NCBI GenBank assembly: GCA_023254175.1
Contig: JALQYJ010000107.1
Coordinates: 1-64,000 of the forward strand
DNA from: Runella sp.
GTDB lineage: Bacteria; Bacteroidota; Bacteroidia; Cytophagales; Spirosomataceae
Direction: 5' to 3'
DNA: 64,000 nt
Numbering within the stretch: position 1 is the first letter of the stretch; every line of letters starts with the position of its first letter. This document shows, piece after piece, positions 8,929 through 46,187 of this stretch. Below the pieces are notes generated by a model that made no database searches, was not told the DNA's origin, and saw nothing but the letters and a program-made list of their open reading frames with translations. A program made the position numbers and the translations under genes.

Positions 8929-8995
8929 TTGGAGTGTCGAATGCAGAATGTCGAATAAGTGGATTTAATTAGACATTCTGCATTCGACACTCCAA
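8929..8995. repeat. 24-bp perfect inverted repeat TTGGAGTGTCGAATGCAGAATGTC / GACATTCTGCATTCGACACTCCAA
   Basis: Arms 8929-8952 and 8972-8995, 19-nt loop; between two convergent genes. Confidence 0.9.
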
Positions 8996-9988
8996 TCAAT
9001 TTTTAGGCTTATCTGCTGGTTTAAAATGTATTTCAGTTGAAAGTATGGCTTCGTTGATGGCCTCAAAATATGGGGAATTAGGGAAATCATGTTGAAAGCG
9101 CTCGAAAAGCCCTTTGAATTTTTTTATTCTTCCGTTGGGACCGATACCCCCTCGGGTAAAAAGCGACCGATGGGTGAGTTGTCCTAGGGTCAATTCGCGG
9201 GTTTTGGGAACGCTCTTGAGGGCTTCTAACATCGCATCGTAGGTTTTTTCCCAATGCGCGCTGTCGGTGACAAAAAATGCACCTCGCATCAGGCCCATAT
9301 CTAAACTAGCTCCTAAAAAATGCTGGTGAATGGAAGAAAGGTACAAGTCCGAGATACGTGCATCGTCCGAAAGCAGCTTAAAACGAGGGCTTTCATTGCG
9401 AGACGTCTCCCCTTGAGACTGTACATGGGTTTGTTTTCGAAGAAATTTCTGCCCTTCGAGTGAAGCCGTCACGTAAGTAGTCAAAAACGCATTGGTGGTG
9501 TCGCAGTTGCGTTGAAAGCGCTCCCAGTACTGGTCGGCTAAGTCGTTAATAATGGTGCTATAGTTATCAAGTGACATGTGCCGAACCAAGGGCTTTTCTC
9601 TCAGAGAGTCCCGCCCGAGCAGCATACTTTCGTACAAAAAATGTTGCAATGCGGCTGTACGCCCCTGCACTTGTGGCGACTGCGTACGGCTTGGATTACA
9701 AAAAATGAGGGTGTCGTTGGGCGATAAAATAAAATCAACCCGATAGCCGAGGCAGTCGATAGAAACTTTTTGGGTTGTCTCTAAACGAATATCGGTTTCA
9801 AAATTTCCGTGCGTATCCGTGCGTCCTTGGGCGATGGTCGTGGAGGTATAGAATGAAGCGGGAAGCCTGATTAAAATGTGGTAGTTTGAGGATGGAAATC
9901 CCTCAAAGTGCCCCCGAATGTGGACATTGGGCTGGGCAAAACACTGCATCGCTCCCAATAACAACGTACACAAAAATCGCATCTTCAT
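8996..9988 (-). CDS. Hypothetical secreted protein
   Basis: 330 aa; signal peptide MKMRFLCTLLLGAMQCFAQ; N-terminal beta-rich region resembling DUF4369-type domains. Confidence 0.6.
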   Translation of the reverse strand: MKMRFLCTLLLGAMQCFAQPNVHIRGHFEGFPSSNYHILIRLPASFYTSTTIAQGRTDTHGNFETDIRLETTQKVSIDCLGYRVDFILSPNDTLIFCNPSRTQSPQVQGRTAALQHFLYESMLLGRDSLREKPLVRHMSLDNYSTIINDLADQYWERFQRNCDTTNAFLTTYVTASLEGQKFLRKQTHVQSQGETSRNESPRFKLLSDDARISDLYLSSIHQHFLGASLDMGLMRGAFFVTDSAHWEKTYDAMLEALKSVPKTRELTLGQLTHRSLFTRGGIGPNGRIKKFKGLFERFQHDFPNSPYFEAINEAILSTEIHFKPADKPKN

Positions 9989-14712: not shown

Positions 14713-14760
14713 TTCATTAAACAAAAACACCACTTAAAAGCGGTGTTTTTGTTTAATGAA
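14713..14760. repeat. Inverted repeat TTCATTAAACAAAAACACCACTT-AA-AAGCGGTGTTTTTGTTTAATGAA
   Basis: 23-bp arms with one mismatch; may act as terminator. Confidence 0.8.
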
Positions 14761-14787
14761 TTATATTCAACATTAAACAGATATTAG

Positions 14788-14841
14788 AATTTTCGATTTT
14801 GTTTAATTTATAACCTCATAAATTAAACAAAATCGAAAATT
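14788..14841. repeat. 24-bp perfect inverted repeat AATTTTCGATTTTGTTTAATTTAT-AACCTC-ATAAATTAAACAAAATCGAAAATT
   Basis: Arms 14788-14811 and 14818-14841, 6-nt loop; upstream of sigma factor gene. Confidence 0.9.
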
Positions 14842-14977
14842 GTACTATTTTAAGTTAAATACCTTTTAAATGCTCAGAATTATCTAAAAAATTGGAAAAA
14901 AGAATTTCAAAAAAGCATTAAAATCAAGCTATTAATGGAAAATTAGTAGGGTTTTGTTCTAAAAATCCAAAAGCTGA

Positions 14978-27418: not shown

Positions 27419-27453
27419 CAGACCTGTAAGGTTTTTAAAACCTTACAGGTCTG
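27419..27453. repeat. Palindrome CAGACCTGTAAGGTTTT-T-AAAACCTTACAGGTCTG
   Basis: 17-bp perfect arms between two minus-strand genes. Confidence 0.9.
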
Positions 27454-35028: not shown

Positions 35029-35062
35029 GAACGAATGACGAATTTTGACTAACGATATTGGA

Positions 35063-35093
35063 ACAAAAAAGCGGACGAAAGCCGCTTTTTTGT
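35063..35093 (+). terminator. Rho-independent terminator
   Basis: ACAAAAAAGCGG-acgaaag-CCGCTTTTTTGT, 12-bp stem. Confidence 0.8.
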
Positions 35094-35128
35094 TTGTGTG
35101 TGGTTGCTCACAATCTCAACACGAATGT

Positions 35129-39262: not shown

Positions 39263-40534
39263 TTAATTTTTTAAAAATCCGTTGTCAACTTTCCAGTTTT
39301 TCTTATCCGAACGCAATTCGAAATTGGCACGGTCGCCTAGTTTTAGTACCACAGGTTTTCCGCTTTTAGGGTCGAGCAGTTGCGCTCCTTGGGCGTCGAT
39401 TTCTTCGATGCCATAAAACACCGACAAATCGCCGAAATCTTCGACGCTGCTGCGGTAGCTAAAGCCCATCGTATCGGCATTATTGGACTCGTTGCGGTTA
39501 ATGGCTATGTCAACGGTATAGCTCACCCCGTTGAGCTCCGTACGGGCGTTGCGGATGATGAGGTCAAAGTGGTTTTTCTCGTTTTGCGGGATTTTTTCGT
39601 AGTCGTTCCGATTCTGGCGAGTGTATGTTCCGTCGGCGATGGCTTCAAGCGCCGTCAAAATAGCGATAAAGTTCATCTTGCGTAAATACTGCTTTTCAGG
39701 GTCATTTTTATACCCGCCTGATTCGATGAGTACCAAACTCGTTCCCCATTTGGCAATGTTATCTCCGAAAGCCCTTGGCTCAAATTCGTCCGAATACCGA
39801 GCGATCTGATTGGGAATAAATTTCTGTAAATCGCGGTTCATCCCTACAATGAGCTGCATGGCCCGCTCTCGGACGGAGTTGATGGTACGTTCTTCGTTGT
39901 AAGCCGTTGCCAAAAACGAAATCGCGGCTACTTCTTTGGTGTTCCCCACGCTGTACCGAGGGCTTTGGTCGTGAAGGTTGAAGCCAACGAGTGGTTTAAG
40001 GGTTTGCTGAAGGTTTTTAAGCAGCTTCGACTCAGGGCATTGAAGACGCACGGCATCGCGGTTCATGTCGATTTCTTGGGCTGTACGGCGCTGCCAACGT
40101 TCGACCCCGTCGGGGTTGAGCATGGGTACAAAGTAAAGCGTACTTTTTTCCAAAAGCTTTTTACGAAGGTCGTCAAAACCATCGCTGCTGGCATTCAAGA
40201 AGTTAAAAATATCGAGCAAAGCCATCGTTGCGGTAGCTTCGTCGCCGTGCATTTGTGACCAAAGAAGCACAGGAGGCGCACCTTTTCCGTATTTGATTTG
40301 ATAAATTTCACGTCCTTCAAACGATTTGCCTGCTTCGCTTACTGCAAAATTAGGACTTGTTTTGAGGCGTTCGATGAGCGGCACTAAATGGCGATGCTTA
40401 AACTCGCGACGTACACTTACGCTTTTTTCTCGAAATAAATCGTGCGCGTCGAAAAGGCGCTGAGCGAGATTACTTTGGGCAATAATGGTTTCAGACATAC
40501 AAAAAAAAGAAACCACCAATAACAGGTGTTTCAT
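39263..40534 (-). CDS. M14 family zinc carboxypeptidase, secreted
   Basis: 423 aa; signal peptide; SQMHGDEATATMALLDI, PMLNPDGVERWQRRTAQEIDMNRD, GFNLHDQ. Confidence 0.9.
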   Translation of the reverse strand: MKHLLLVVSFFCMSETIIAQSNLAQRLFDAHDLFREKSVSVRREFKHRHLVPLIERLKTSPNFAVSEAGKSFEGREIYQIKYGKGAPPVLLWSQMHGDEATATMALLDIFNFLNASSDGFDDLRKKLLEKSTLYFVPMLNPDGVERWQRRTAQEIDMNRDAVRLQCPESKLLKNLQQTLKPLVGFNLHDQSPRYSVGNTKEVAAISFLATAYNEERTINSVRERAMQLIVGMNRDLQKFIPNQIARYSDEFEPRAFGDNIAKWGTSLVLIESGGYKNDPEKQYLRKMNFIAILTALEAIADGTYTRQNRNDYEKIPQNEKNHFDLIIRNARTELNGVSYTVDIAINRNESNNADTMGFSYRSSVEDFGDLSVFYGIEEIDAQGAQLLDPKSGKPVVLKLGDRANFELRSDKKNWKVDNGFLKN

Positions 40535-40559: not shown

Positions 40560-40588
40560 CTCCGCGAAAGTTCAGAACTTTCGCGGAG
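40560..40588. repeat. Palindrome CTCCGCGAAAGTT-CAG-AACTTTCGCGGAG
   Basis: 13-bp perfect arms, 3-nt loop, between divergent genes. Confidence 0.9.
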
Positions 40589-40697
40589 GTTCGCAAATTA
40601 AGGCAATTCAAAACGGATTAATCTTGACAATTTAAGCTTCTGTCGGGCTAGTTCGTGTTTCTGTCGAGGCTTAAAATAATGGATTGTAGGGGTGTTG

Positions 40698-40705
40698 TAT
40701 ATTTG
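40698..40705 (+). promoter_or_regulatory. -7 element TATATTTG upstream of GH106-like gene
   Basis: TAnnTTTG match 34 bp before the ATG at 40740. Confidence 0.4.
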
Positions 40706-40739
40706 TACTACTTTATTTAAAGATAATACAAATACTGCT

Positions 40740-43700
40740 ATGGCTAAAAAATATGTACCCTACTTGGGGCTTTTGGTGCTCATCTTTGTGTTTGGTTGCA
40801 GTAAAAAGGTTATTGAAACCAAAAAATTTGAACGCTTCAATCCCGTTACAGCCCTTACCAATAATTCATTTTTGAATCCTTCATCAGAGGATTTTCCGTG
40901 GGTAAGGTGGAACTTCCCGCCCGAAACAGCTGAGATTGGGGAATTAGAAAAACAACTCGTTGAATTAAAAGACGCAGGTATTGCAGGAGTAGAAATTGGC
41001 CAAGGTGGAGAGCCAACCCTGCCCCAAATTGAGGCGATTTTAAGAAAAGCCAATCAAATTGGCCTAAAAGTTAGTTTGAAATACAAAACGGGAGCGCCAA
41101 CCCCAGGAAGTTTTTTGGCCAAACATAACTACGTACGCAAAACACTAGCCGCCGCAGATACGCTGCTCCAAGCAGGAAGTAATTTCAATGATACGTTGCC
41201 AGGAAAAGGGACAATCCTTTCGGTACAGGCGTATGAAGTAGTAAGCCTACCCACAAAAGGCTCGAAAATAGTGACCATCAATCATGCTTCTGCGGTCAAC
41301 CTGACGGATAAAATAACACAAACCAATGCGACTGGCTTTTTTGGAGGAACGACAACGGGGCGTTTAACTTGGAAAACACCCGAGGGGAAAAATCAATGGG
41401 TATTGATTGTATTTCGAGTGCAGACAGTTGATCCTCAGCCCGAAGTGTTTAGTCGAGAAGGTACGGACTTACTTATTAAAGGATATGAATCTTATTGGAC
41501 TGATGCCATCAAGAACCTTCTAAGGCAGAACGGAGGCGGGGATATTTTTGTAGATTCTCACTCAATCGATGGTTTTGGAGCACCAAGTGATGTATGGAGT
41601 AGCAACATGACAAATGAGTTTAAAGCCCGAGCGGGTTATGATTTAATACCTCACTTGCCTGCTTTGATAGATGCTGGAATTGACCGAGTTTGGGGGCCAA
41701 GAGGAGGTGGGCTTGATATAGATCATTACTATACCTACAGTAACAAAACCGATACCCGGATTCGGGCTGATTACAACAAGGTCAGAACCGAACTATTTGT
41801 GGAGTATCGTATCAAGCCTTTTAGAGACTGGGCCAATAGCTATAATTTGGCACTTAGACTTCAACCAGAAGATGTACCAGTAGTAAACACGCCAGACCAA
41901 CTGGATGTGACTTATCACCTCGACCGCCCCGAACACGAAACCTTGGCGTCGGGGGATCAAATAGATGTGTACCGACCTATGGCGTCGGCCAATCACATCA
42001 GCGGAAATACGTGGTATTCTAATGAACTGGCAGCGGCTCGTTCGTTAAATTATGCCCAAACTTTTCAGGATATTATCGTGAGAATGAACAAATGCTTTGC
42101 CAGCGGGCAAACCAAAGGCGTGTACCACGTATATCCTTACACTTTCAATCCTAAGTCTGTATGGCCAGGCTATAATACATTTGCAGAGGCCAACTTTGCC
42201 AATAGCTGGGGGCCTCGAAATCCTATTTGGTTTACAGAAGCCAAGACAATCAATACTTGGATGGCTCGCAACGAACAGGTGTTGAAACAAGGTGTGGCAA
42301 AAATAGATGTGGCAGTATACATGCAAAACTATTCATTCCCAGCTCCTTTTGTGGCGGGGGTAGGAAATGTACGTTTTTGGAACGACTTGGCTTTGCAGCA
42401 AGAAGGTTTTACGTGGGATTATCTCAACCCAACGTTGTTGAATCTCCCTCAACTTACGGCTTCCAATAATCGCTTATATGAAAAAGGACCTGCGTATAAA
42501 GCGTTTATTTTGAACGGTTTTTTGCAGTCGGCTTCCGTATTTAATCCTGCTAAAAATACTCTCCCCGTAGCAACGGCTCAAAAGATTTTAATGCTTGCCA
42601 AACAAGGTCTTCCCGTAATCATTGTAGGACAGTTGCCATTTAATACGCCAAGTAACAAACCTGAAGAGGATGCAGTACTAAAGGCAGTATTGGAACAACT
42701 GATGTTGCAAAAAACAGTACACAAGGCGGCAACCGAAGCTGATGTACCCAAACTGCTAAAATCGTTGGGAATATTTCCTGCTTCAAATCCTGAAAAGCCA
42801 TCGAATTTGATGACGATGCGTCGCTACGACTCAGCGTCGAAAACGGATTATTACTTTTTGTATAACCAAGGTGATGACCAAATTCCTGCTACTCCCAATG
42901 CCAAAGAAGAACGTTATAAAGGCTTGACCACTACGCCAGGAAATATCTTCGAAGAACCTAAAACGGTTAGAGTAAAAGGCTTGAATTATGCCACAAAAAT
43001 AGGTTCTTCGCTAAAAACCCAAGTGATACTAGAAGGGGCTGGGCAGCCATTTTTGCTGAATGCTTGGTCGGGAGAAATAACTCCTATCGCTCATTATACA
43101 ACCGACGGTAAACAGGTAACTATGACCGTGGATTTGGCCGTGGATGAATCGATGCTTGTCGGTGTTACTCAGAATGCCACAAAGCTTGGCTTACCGATGG
43201 CAGATGTTTATGTCAACGAAACGAATGCCGACGGGGTGAGTCAAACATCGAATGGGGGAGTTTCAATCATTGCCACGAAAGCGGGGAATTATACAACGAA
43301 GCTGAGTAATGGACAAACCGTAAAAACGACCCTCGAAGCGCCACTTGATAAAATAGACCTTACGCAAGCAAAATGGAGCTTGAGTGTAGAAGACTGGCAA
43401 CCACAGCAAAAATATGGGACAACGGGTGCGGCTGGCGCGGAAACGTCAAAGTCGTTGATAACGTTGAATTTGAACTCATTACAACCTTGGCCAGACATTG
43501 CTGAGTTGAAAAATGCCTCAGGAGTAGGTACTTATAGCTATGCCTTGAATCTTCCAATGGCGTGGAATAACAGTGATCATGGAGCCACCCTTAGCCTTGG
43601 GCAAGTCGTAGATGCGTTTACGTTAAGAGTAAATGGTCAACTTATTCCTACTGACCAACTTAGTGCCAAAGTTGATTTAGGAAGTAGTTTAAAGGCAGGG

Positions 43701-43856
43701 GAGAATAAGATAGAAATTCGGGTTTCAACAACCCTCAACAATCGACTTCATACGCTGAATAAAGCTGTCGCCGACCGAGGTATCATTCAAGAATATGGAT
43801 TGGTGGGCCCTGTGATTTTTCAACCGTACAAAAAAGCGACTATTTGGTCGAAGTAA
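40740..43856 (+). CDS. GH106-like glycoside hydrolase (alpha-L-rhamnosidase type), predicted lipoprotein
   Basis: MAKKYVPYLGLLVLIFVFGCSKK lipobox; FPWVRWNFPPETAEIGELEKQLVELKDAGIAGVEI; ORF track starts at 40692 but the lipoprotein Met is at 40740. Confidence 0.75.
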   Translation: MAKKYVPYLGLLVLIFVFGCSKKVIETKKFERFNPVTALTNNSFLNPSSEDFPWVRWNFPPETAEIGELEKQLVELKDAGIAGVEIGQGGEPTLPQIEAILRKANQIGLKVSLKYKTGAPTPGSFLAKHNYVRKTLAAADTLLQAGSNFNDTLPGKGTILSVQAYEVVSLPTKGSKIVTINHASAVNLTDKITQTNATGFFGGTTTGRLTWKTPEGKNQWVLIVFRVQTVDPQPEVFSREGTDLLIKGYESYWTDAIKNLLRQNGGGDIFVDSHSIDGFGAPSDVWSSNMTNEFKARAGYDLIPHLPALIDAGIDRVWGPRGGGLDIDHYYTYSNKTDTRIRADYNKVRTELFVEYRIKPFRDWANSYNLALRLQPEDVPVVNTPDQLDVTYHLDRPEHETLASGDQIDVYRPMASANHISGNTWYSNELAAARSLNYAQTFQDIIVRMNKCFASGQTKGVYHVYPYTFNPKSVWPGYNTFAEANFANSWGPRNPIWFTEAKTINTWMARNEQVLKQGVAKIDVAVYMQNYSFPAPFVAGVGNVRFWNDLALQQEGFTWDYLNPTLLNLPQLTASNNRLYEKGPAYKAFILNGFLQSASVFNPAKNTLPVATAQKILMLAKQGLPVIIVGQLPFNTPSNKPEEDAVLKAVLEQLMLQKTVHKAATEADVPKLLKSLGIFPASNPEKPSNLMTMRRYDSASKTDYYFLYNQGDDQIPATPNAKEERYKGLTTTPGNIFEEPKTVRVKGLNYATKIGSSLKTQVILEGAGQPFLLNAWSGEITPIAHYTTDGKQVTMTVDLAVDESMLVGVTQNATKLGLPMADVYVNETNADGVSQTSNGGVSIIATKAGNYTTKLSNGQTVKTTLEAPLDKIDLTQAKWSLSVEDWQPQQKYGTTGAAGAETSKSLITLNLNSLQPWPDIAELKNASGVGTYSYALNLPMAWNNSDHGATLSLGQVVDAFTLRVNGQLIPTDQLSAKVDLGSSLKAGENKIEIRVSTTLNNRLHTLNKAVADRGIIQEYGLVGPVIFQPYKKATIWSK

Positions 43857-43858
43857 GC

Positions 43859-43893
43859 AACCTTTGGCAAAGTTCAAAACTTTGCCAAAGGTT
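43859..43893. repeat. Palindrome AACCTTTGGCAAAGTT-CAA-AACTTTGCCAAAGGTT
   Basis: 16-bp perfect arms, 3-nt loop, starts 2 bp after a stop codon. Confidence 0.95.
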
Positions 43894-43896
43894 TAA

Positions 43897-44401
43897 GGTT
43901 TTTCTTTTATACCTACGTATAATAACGCTGTTGCTGTCAATGGGATATTTAGTTTGTTTAATTACCTTAATCAAAACTTTGGTTTAAATATTGCTGAACA
44001 AAATTTTTATAGCACGTTCCCTTGGGTAATTCCTCAAGCAATTCTAGATGAGGCAGATGTAAGGAATAAAATGAGCGAAATCTATTGCGGGGATGATATG
44101 GTTAATCATTATAATGGTAGCGCATTTAAACATGCCTATTTTTCTGCTGATATAGCTAGAACGATGGGACAAGTACACGAAGATAGGGAGTCTTGCATTA
44201 CATGCTCAAATGGACTTGTATAATAACGAATTAGGTATTCAAATTGCATCAGAATTGCCCAGTTCTGCGGGAGATGAAGCCTTAAAAAATGCTATTCTTA
44301 CTGCAATTATAAATGGTAATGGAAGGCGAATAGCTTTATTAAATGATGGTGCAACGCTAAATTTCATGTTTCCGACAGATGATTCTAATAGGTGTTGGTA
44401 G
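43897..44401 (+). pseudogene. Decayed DUF6973-like protein (frameshifted, no clear start)
   Basis: Frame 1 to about 44190 (..GSAFKHAYFSADIARTMGQVHEDRES) continues in frame 2 (LALHAQMDLYNNELGIQIASELP..DDSNRCW); spans TTG-started ORFs 43954-44223 and 44210-44401. Confidence 0.65.
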
Positions 44402-44803
44402 AAAAAATATTTTTTTGGGGGAGTTATTCCACTTGCTTCTTTCACAGTTAGTTGTATTTCTACTACGACTGATGTCTATCATATTGAAAATGCAAGTGAA
44501 AAACGAAACTTTACTCCTTTTGTAATGAGTCCTCGTTCATCATTTTACTGCCTGCATGTAAAAGGGGAAATAAATGGCGCGGCCGAATTGCATTTTTTGT
44601 TACCAAATCATGATTTTAGTAAAGGGCCGACATGTGATGATTACCACGTAAAGTTAGATTCGGGCAAAGTGGATAAATATATACAAGGGGATTATTTTGG
44701 AGGATTTGAGCGACCCAATATCTTTTATCTACCTTGCAACGTCACAAAAGGCCATTTGAACATTGAAATTGCTTTTAATAAAGATTTGAGAAACAACAAG
44801 TGA
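44402..44803 (+). pseudogene. Lipoprotein-like ORF lacking a start codon
   Basis: Frame 2 open directly after TAG: KKYFFGGVIPLASFTVSCISTTTDVYHIENASEKRNFTPFVMSPRSSFYCLHVKG...; looks like a lipoprotein leader missing its ATG. Confidence 0.55.
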
Positions 44804-44844
44804 TTTACCTTCTCGAAAGTTTAGAACTTTCGAGAAGGTAAATC
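44802..44844. repeat. Palindrome GATTTACCTTCTCGAAAGTT-TAG-AACTTTCGAGAAGGTAAATC
   Basis: 20-bp perfect arms, 3-nt loop; followed by partial copy AACTTTCGGGAAA. Confidence 0.95.
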
Positions 44845-44872
44845 CAAAACTTTCGGGAAAATTGTAGCTTTA

Positions 44873-46126
44873 TCACCATCTCACCTGTCCATTACCCACC
44901 ACAACCCACTTCTCTGTTATGAGTTTTTCGAGGGCAAAAGGGCCGCGGGCGTGGAGTTTTTGGGTAGAAATACCAATTTCAGCCCCAAGGCCAAACACAC
45001 CTCCGTCGGTAAAACGCGTGGAAGCATTGGCATAGACGGCTGCCGCATCCACTTCGGCTAGGAAGCGGTCAACAGCTGCTTGGTTTTGGGAAACAATGGC
45101 TTCGGAGTGGCGCGATGAGTAGTTCTGAATGTGTGAAAGCGCTTCGTCTAGGCTGTCAACTACTTTTACGGCTAGTTTATAATCCAAAAACTCGCGTCCA
45201 AAATCTTGGGGTTGAGCGTGTTGAAGTTTGGGGTAAGAGATGCCTTCAAAAATCGGATACGACGCATCGTCGGCGTACACTTCTACGTTCCACTTGATAA
45301 AATCGTCGTTGAGCATAGGCAAAAACTCAGCAGCGATGGCGCGGTCAACAATCAGGCAATCCATTGAGTTGCAGACTGAAGGCCGCGAGACGCGCGCATT
45401 GACCACAATATCACGGGCTTTGGCAAGGTCAGCCGTGGACTCAATGTAGCCGTGACATACCCCCGCACCCGTTTCGATGGTGGGAATCAAGGAGTTTTTA
45501 CGCACAAACTGAATCAACGACTCCGAACCGCGCGGAATGATAATATCGACATATCGCGTGGCCGTGAGCAATTCGGTCACAAACTGACGGTCGGTAGGAA
45601 GCAACATCACGGCGCTGGTGTCCACCCCTGCTTCTTGCAGTGCTTGGTGAATCAAACCGACCAAACAACGATTGGAGAAATCTGCCTCTTTACCACCCTT
45701 CAGCACACACGCATTGCCCGAACGCAAACACAACGAGGCTACGTCCACCGTCACGTTGGGGCGCGACTCGTAGATAGCTCCTACGACTCCCAACGGTACA
45801 GTAATTTTCTTGAGTTTAAGCTCTTGTTCAATCTCTCGTTCCAACAACACCTGCCCCGACGGGTCGGGCAACAGCGCTACGTCGCGGAGGCTGTCGGCTA
45901 GTCCCTGAATCCGTTTTTCGTTTAAAAACAAACGGTCTTTTTTCGGGTCGCCATCGGGCATTCGCTCCATGTCTTTCTGGTTTTCGGCCATAATCAGCGC
46001 TTGGTGTTCTAGCAGCAAATCGGCGAGGCGATTGAGCAAGGCCGTTTTTTGCTCGCTAGTCAAGCGACGCACTTGCGCAGCGGCTTGTTGCGTGGCTTGA
46101 AGTTGGGGTACGATGGTAGTTGTCAT
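44873..46126 (-). CDS. proA: Glutamate-5-semialdehyde dehydrogenase
   Basis: ARDIVVNARVSRPSVCNSMDCLIV, IYESRPNVTVDVASLCLRSGNACVLKGGKEA; start taken at MTTTIVPQ rather than 46177. Confidence 0.95.
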   Translation of the reverse strand: MTTTIVPQLQATQQAAAQVRRLTSEQKTALLNRLADLLLEHQALIMAENQKDMERMPDGDPKKDRLFLNEKRIQGLADSLRDVALLPDPSGQVLLEREIEQELKLKKITVPLGVVGAIYESRPNVTVDVASLCLRSGNACVLKGGKEADFSNRCLVGLIHQALQEAGVDTSAVMLLPTDRQFVTELLTATRYVDIIIPRGSESLIQFVRKNSLIPTIETGAGVCHGYIESTADLAKARDIVVNARVSRPSVCNSMDCLIVDRAIAAEFLPMLNDDFIKWNVEVYADDASYPIFEGISYPKLQHAQPQDFGREFLDYKLAVKVVDSLDEALSHIQNYSSRHSEAIVSQNQAAVDRFLAEVDAAAVYANASTRFTDGGVFGLGAEIGISTQKLHARGPFALEKLITEKWVVVGNGQVRW

Positions 46127-46187
46127 AATGAATAAATTGAGCTGCAAATGTCCTGAAAATCGCTCGAAATACCACATAAAAAAGCTA

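What the first reader, a model, noticed from the sequence alone, without database searches (positions are those of the whole stretch)
40560..44844. Cassette-like layout: palindromes with different stems but the same AAGTT-NNN-AACTT centre
Three perfect palindromes: 40560-40588 (13-bp arms, loop CAG), 43859-43893 (16-bp arms, loop CAA), 44802-44844 (20-bp arms, loop TAG). Outer stem sequences differ (CTCCGCGA / AACCTTTGGCA / GATTTACCTTCTCGA) yet pair perfectly, while the inner AAGTT..AACTT is constant. They bracket the GH106-like gene exactly (the second starts 2 bp after its stop) and then a decayed gene pair (the third overlaps its stop). One copy lies between divergent genes, so terminator function alone does not explain it. 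A related element at 27419-27453 has AAGGTTTT-T-AAAACCTT at its centre.
Basis: partly seen in the sequence, partly recalled or inferred. Interest (0 to 1): 0.7.

Follow-up and report, generated by a model that had tools for sequence, protein, structure and literature searches.

The report
Dispersed hairpin repeats ending Runella genes
The three palindromes belong to a family of short hairpin repeats that has multiplied in one group of Runella bacteria and sits almost always just after the ends of genes, probably helping to end or protect messages, and at this one spot they also mark the edges of gene blocks that come and go between species.

Summary
The three palindromes are real and far beyond chance. 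They are not unrelated stems around one constant centre: they are diverged copies of one dispersed family (F1, consensus about AACCTTCCCGAAAGTT-NNN-AACTTTCGGGAAGGTT). This Runella genome has about 65 places, and three close relatives have at least ~75 each; other Runella have about 8-17.

Copies sit just after stop codons: 33 convergent, 27 codirectional, 2 divergent (chance: ~10 convergent, ~12 divergent of 62). Stems are kept paired by two-sided changes, across the family and between orthologous copies. At two conserved gene junctions the hairpin is absent in distant Runella (at one, convergent stop codons are 2 bp apart), so hairpins were gained without gene gain.

The proA-M14 locus is nevertheless cassette-like: six species are empty (44-52 bp gap, no hairpin), while five genomes carry different gene modules starting at an E1 copy and bounded by hairpins. 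I read this as passive recombination between repeats, not a dedicated cassette system.

E1 between divergent genes is best read as proA's former 3' hairpin, cut off by later insertion. Most copies lack a U-tract; no RAYT tracks copy number. Best reading: REP-like, bidirectional 3'-end hairpin. Termination itself is untested.

The parts
40560..40588 (.). E1, F1-family hairpin, 13-bp arms, loop CAG; 26 bp upstream of the M14 start codon; left edge of the variable block
   Evidence: orthologous in R. limosa, G001, G010, G007 with a two-sided CG/GC change
43859..43893 (.). E2, F1-family hairpin, 16-bp arms, loop CAA, 2 bp after the GH106 stop, followed by TAAGGTTTTT
44802..44844 (.). E3, F1-family hairpin, 20-bp arms, loop TAG; arm overlaps the stop codon of the decayed gene; 3' side of proA (convergent)
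44847..44859 (+). extra half-arm AAACTTTCGGGAA just right of E3, like the duplicated half-arms seen at other copies
   Evidence: comparable half-arms in relatives
27419..27453 (.). member of the related F3 hairpin family (AGACCT..AAGGTTTT)
39263..40534 (-). M14 zinc carboxypeptidase-like gene, left flank
   Evidence: Peptidase_M14 2e-14; in all 13 Runella genomes
40692..43856 (+). GH106-like gene, variable module
   Evidence: Glyco_hydro_106 4.9e-26; of the compared genomes only G007 also has it here
43954..44803 (+). decayed module D (fragments D1 and D2; D2 is a paralogue of X2 in relatives)
44873..46177 (-). proA-like aldehyde dehydrogenase gene, right flank
   Evidence: Aldedh 2.4e-17; next to M14 in the compared Runella; the name proA is from my knowledge of the sequence

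Best explanation
E1-E3 are copies of a REP-like dispersed palindrome (F1) that multiplied in one Runella clade and is retained almost only just downstream of stop codons, where transcripts of both strands end in a stable hairpin. It most likely works as a bidirectional 3'-end hairpin: it ends transcription, or fixes and protects the mRNA 3' end after Rho-dependent termination, for both converging genes. Perfect pairing is kept by two-sided changes, plausibly produced by template switching between the arms and kept by selection. The cassette look at proA-M14 comes from gene modules lost or gained between nearly identical hairpins in a gene-gain hotspot; E1 was proA's 3' hairpin before the block separated them. 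Shown: family, position bias, two-sided changes, clade-specific gain at two junctions, hairpin-bounded module differences. Inferred: termination or mRNA protection, template switching, passive recombination, history of E1.
For: About 65 places in the genome. 33 convergent, 27 codirectional, 2 divergent; against intergenic bases P = 3e-11 for the convergent excess and 1e-4 for the divergent deficit; median 6.5 nt from the nearest stop, 52 of 60 within 25 nt. Nine of 16 pairs have two-sided changes, 0 of 500 shuffles as high. Between orthologues of this genome and R. limosa: 8 two-sided changes, including GC-CG and AT-CG switches, against 1 one-sided change that kept pairing and 5 that broke it. 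Copy number at least ~75 in G001, G004 (R. limosa) and G010, about 8-17 in other Runella. Hairpin absent at conserved junctions in distant species: 2 bp between convergent stops in G003, G009, G011, G012 against a 52-70 bp gap in the clade; 24-bp gap in G003 at limosa 324525. Limosa's two hairpins around module D share a 35-bp identical direct repeat; G001 lacks D and has one hairpin carrying the left flank of the first and the right flank of the second. At one junction the inner half of a double hairpin is inverted between G010 and G001, and half-arm duplications recur, as template switching would produce (PMC8794818).
Against: No RNA data: termination is untested. Most copies lack a U-tract (22% of ends have 5 or more T in 8, background 10%), while separate A-tract/T-tract hairpins exist (19 in 1.2 Mb of R. 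limosa). Many convergent junctions have neither kind, so F1 is not required. No enzyme that spreads F1 was found. The 53-bp stretch around E1 is identical in R. limosa and the distant G007, which suggests a specific role in the M14 leader that this account does not explain. The G007 block is patchy on the tree.
Confidence: 0.6

Rival explanations
1. The hairpins are recombination sites of a gene-cassette system (attC-like): each gene arrives with its hairpin and modules are exchanged at the hairpins by a recombinase.
For: Hairpin-bounded modules X, X2, GH106 and D differ among five genomes at proA-M14, with hairpin-free empty sites in six species. Three other F1 copies sit where the two neighbours lie at different loci in distant Runella.
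Against: Most copies are solitary; the same neighbours flank them in R. limosa; two hairpins were gained with no gene change. Broken adjacency is common anyway: 9 of 17 scored convergent and 42 of 81 codirectional junctions without F1-F3. Limosa has X and X2 with no hairpin between them. No bulged, asymmetric stem as in attC. An integron integrase was not searched for.
Confidence: 0.13
2. A classical REP element moved by a RAYT (Y1/HUH transposase), with 3'-end placement only a result of selection against insertion in genes and promoters.
For: Size, copy number, and convergent and unidirectional placement match REPs described in PMC3733652; clade-specific amplification and hairpin-only gains.
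Against: G010 has at least ~75 F1 copies but no full-length Y1 transposase; G003 and G007 have nine Y1 matches each and few F1 copies. Only one weak F1 match in the 30 Y1-bearing loci searched. No unpaired GTAG or CGTC tag at the ends.
Confidence: 0.12
3. Ordinary intrinsic terminators of fixed genes, evolving in place, with sequence likeness due to shared constraint rather than spread.
For: Placement after stops and between convergent genes, two-sided changes, retention at 12 of 14 sites in R. limosa; compensatory evolution of intrinsic terminators is known (PMC5381666).
Against: The CCCGAAAGTT core is shared beyond what a terminator should need; U-tract mostly missing; copies absent from distant species at the same junctions; strong clade difference in number.
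Confidence: 0.12

Closest known systems
REP / BIME elements (GTAG- and CGTC-tagged palindromic repeats)
   Same: 20-45 bp palindromes, tens to hundreds of copies, between convergent and unidirectional genes, near 3' ends, number varying between lineages
   Different: no unpaired GTAG/CGTC tag, no RAYT that tracks copy number, stems pair to the ends with a conserved inner core
Bidirectional intrinsic transcription terminators
   Same: symmetric stable hairpin just after the stops of convergent genes, compensatory changes
   Different: no consistent U-tract, repeated conserved core, gained in one clade; separate A/T-tract hairpins exist in the same genome
Integron attC sites
   Same: palindromes with varying stems bounding gene modules at one locus
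   Different: 35-45 bp perfect symmetric stems without bulges, mostly solitary, also gained without genes
Terminators made of paired DNA uptake sequences
   Same: a repeated word in inverted pairs after genes (known for other bacteria; PMC1852404, seen only as a search result)
   Different: single half-sites are not enriched outside hairpins (1 against 1 in the reversed control)

Membership tests
REP elements | short palindrome in many copies, mainly extragenic, between convergent or unidirectional genes | tested here: met
REP elements | unpaired GTAG or CGTC tag at one end | tested here: not met
   alignment A2; definition from PMC3733652
REP elements | associated RAYT (Y1 transposase) | tested here: not met
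   Y1 genes do not track F1 number; only one weak F1 match near them
Intrinsic terminator | stable hairpin close after a stop codon | tested here: met
Intrinsic terminator | U-tract directly after the stem | tested here: not met
   22 of 100 ends have 5 or more T in 8 (background 10%); E2 itself does have a T-rich tail
Intrinsic terminator | transcripts end there | not testable with these tools
   needs 3'-end mapping
Integron attC / cassette site | one site per gene, in arrays beside an integrase | tested here: inconclusive
   mostly solitary; one array-like locus; integrase not searched
Integron attC / cassette site | imperfect stem with extrahelical bases | tested here: not met
   perfect symmetric stems; attC definition from memory
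DNA uptake sequence | single copies of the word over-represented genome-wide | tested here: not met
   in 348 kb

The most novel reading that the evidence does not exclude
F1 hairpins are mobile units spread by an unknown enzyme that targets gene 3' ends, and where two copies lie close they act as exchange points for whole genes, giving a cassette system without an integron.
Probability: 0.1. Interest if true: 0.75.

Novelty: new member of a known kind. Interest (0 to 1): 0.42.

Why it matters
My paper searches found no description of REP-like palindromes in Runella. This family gives presence/absence at orthologous junctions, hairpins gained in a 2-bp gap between convergent stop codons, and no transposase that tracks it, so it is a good case for asking how short palindromes spread, and whether paired changes in stems come from selection or from template switching. 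It also warns that hairpin-bounded gene modules need not mean a recombinase.

Tried and rejected
Uptake-sequence idea: half-sites not enriched. RAYT link: not found. F1 in viral contigs or plasmids: none (one exact pattern and one 35-base query only). Rfam: no match in the window. F1 at synteny breaks: three copies looked so, but the baseline of broken adjacency is about half and my sample is too small. Gene calls are from my own ORF scorer, so a few contexts (6 'inside' cases) are doubtful. Paper searches for Runella or Bacteroidota palindromic repeats gave nothing specific.

Full report
Observation. The three palindromes are exact at the given coordinates and not expected by chance; all three fold far better than shuffles. 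They align to one consensus stem with matched changes on both arms, so the statement that the outer stems differ is true, but they are related.

Family. The window lies in a Runella genome (closest named M14 match R. limosa DSM 17973 at 97%). A covariance model built from 11 copies finds about 65 places in the 4.85-Mb genome. In 1.2 Mb of R. limosa the model finds 18 clear copies and some weaker ones, among them members of sister families: F2 (AGACYTTCCAAGTTT...) and F3 (AGACCTATAAGGTTTT..., to which window 27419-27453 belongs); a further repeat F4 is GTAGAGACGTTGCATGCAACGTCTCTAC. A/T-tract hairpins of ordinary terminator type are present separately.

Position. Of 62 copies with clear context, 33 lie between convergent genes, 27 between codirectional genes and 2 between divergent genes; against intergenic bases in R. 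limosa the convergent excess has P = 3e-11 and the divergent deficit P = 1e-4. The nearest stop is a median 6.5 nt away, 52 of 60 within 25 nt.

Pairing. Nine of 16 stem pairs show two-sided changes, more than any of 500 shuffles. Orthologous copies in this genome and R. limosa show 8 two-sided changes against 6 one-sided, including GC to CG at E1. Palindromes extend into unique flanks: E3 takes in part of a stop codon, and in G010 the copy orthologous to C158:94926 pairs through both convergent stop codons. Half-arms are duplicated next to several copies, and the inner half of one double hairpin is inverted between G010 and G001. These are what template switching produces (PMC8794818); that process was not tested directly, and selection alone may give two-sided changes (PMC5381666).

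Gain without genes. At one conserved convergent pair the clade has a hairpin in a 52-70 bp gap, while G003, G009, G011 and G012 have 2 bp between the stop codons, and G006, G008 and G007 have a hairpin-free gap. At limosa 324525 the G003 gap is 24 bp without hairpin. Twelve of 14 sites keep a hairpin between this genome and R. limosa; one was swapped for an F3 copy, one replaced.

The proA-M14 locus. Six species are empty with 44-52 bp and no hairpin; R. zeae has an unrelated 632-bp insert, XisH/XisI-like by eye. Occupied: this genome E1-GH106-E2-D-E3; G001 E1-X-hp-X2-hp; G010 the same plus an insert resembling that of zeae; R. limosa E1-X-X2-hp-D-hp; G007 E1-X-GH106-hp. Limosa's hairpins around D share 35 identical bases, and G001 has one hybrid hairpin and no D, so D plus a hairpin differs as a unit. 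That is real module turnover at hairpins, but recombination between short direct repeats suffices. E1 lies where, by comparison with the empty MFBS21 site, proA's stop would be about 20 bp away, which fits a former 3' hairpin of proA. Against a complete account: a 53-bp stretch with E1 is identical in R. limosa and G007, although M14 of G007 is only 83-84% identical, and G007 groups with empty-site species; the block may have moved between lineages or been lost several times, and E1 may have a leader role.

Mechanism of spread. Y1 transposase genes do not track F1 number, and only one weak F1 match lies near them. How F1 spread is unknown. Single half-sites are not enriched, against an uptake-sequence reading. 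Baseline synteny breakage between R. limosa and G003 is about half of junctions, so the F1 copies at synteny breaks carry little weight.

Verdict. A REP-like dispersed 3'-end hairpin family, new for Runella as far as my searches of the held papers show, with one cassette-like locus explained by ordinary means. Function as terminator or 3'-end protector is inferred.

Noticed in passing
window 27419-27453: Member of a second dispersed hairpin family (F3) that in R. limosa occupies a junction where this genome has an F1 copy (L044:2670).
   Followed up: partly
window 8929-8995: 28-nt inverted repeat with an 11-nt loop starting 9 bp after one gene and ending at the next convergent gene's stop; possibly yet another 3'-end hairpin type.
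   Followed up: no
window 14713-14848: Two long AT-rich inverted repeats (23 and 31 nt arms) in one intergenic region.
   Followed up: no
window 35062-35094: A-tract/T-tract hairpin of ordinary bidirectional terminator type, also present in R. limosa and R. aurantiaca.
   Followed up: partly
window 43954-44803: Decayed gene fragments, one with a weak DUF6973 match; the second (D2) is a paralogue (about 35% identity) of X2 in relatives.
   Followed up: partly
L019:1380-1860: The only Y1 transposase gene of this genome, lying among genes that look like a type III CRISPR (Cmr) locus by eye.
   Followed up: no
L097 about 9370-9970 and L177 between module X2 and proA: XisH/XisI-like gene pair inserted at the same proA-M14 site in R. 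zeae and G010.
   Followed up: no
R. limosa scaffold, e.g. L189-L192: Repeated palindrome GTAGAGACGTTGCATGCAACGTCTCTAC, 7 copies in 1.2 Mb, all in codirectional junctions.
   Followed up: no
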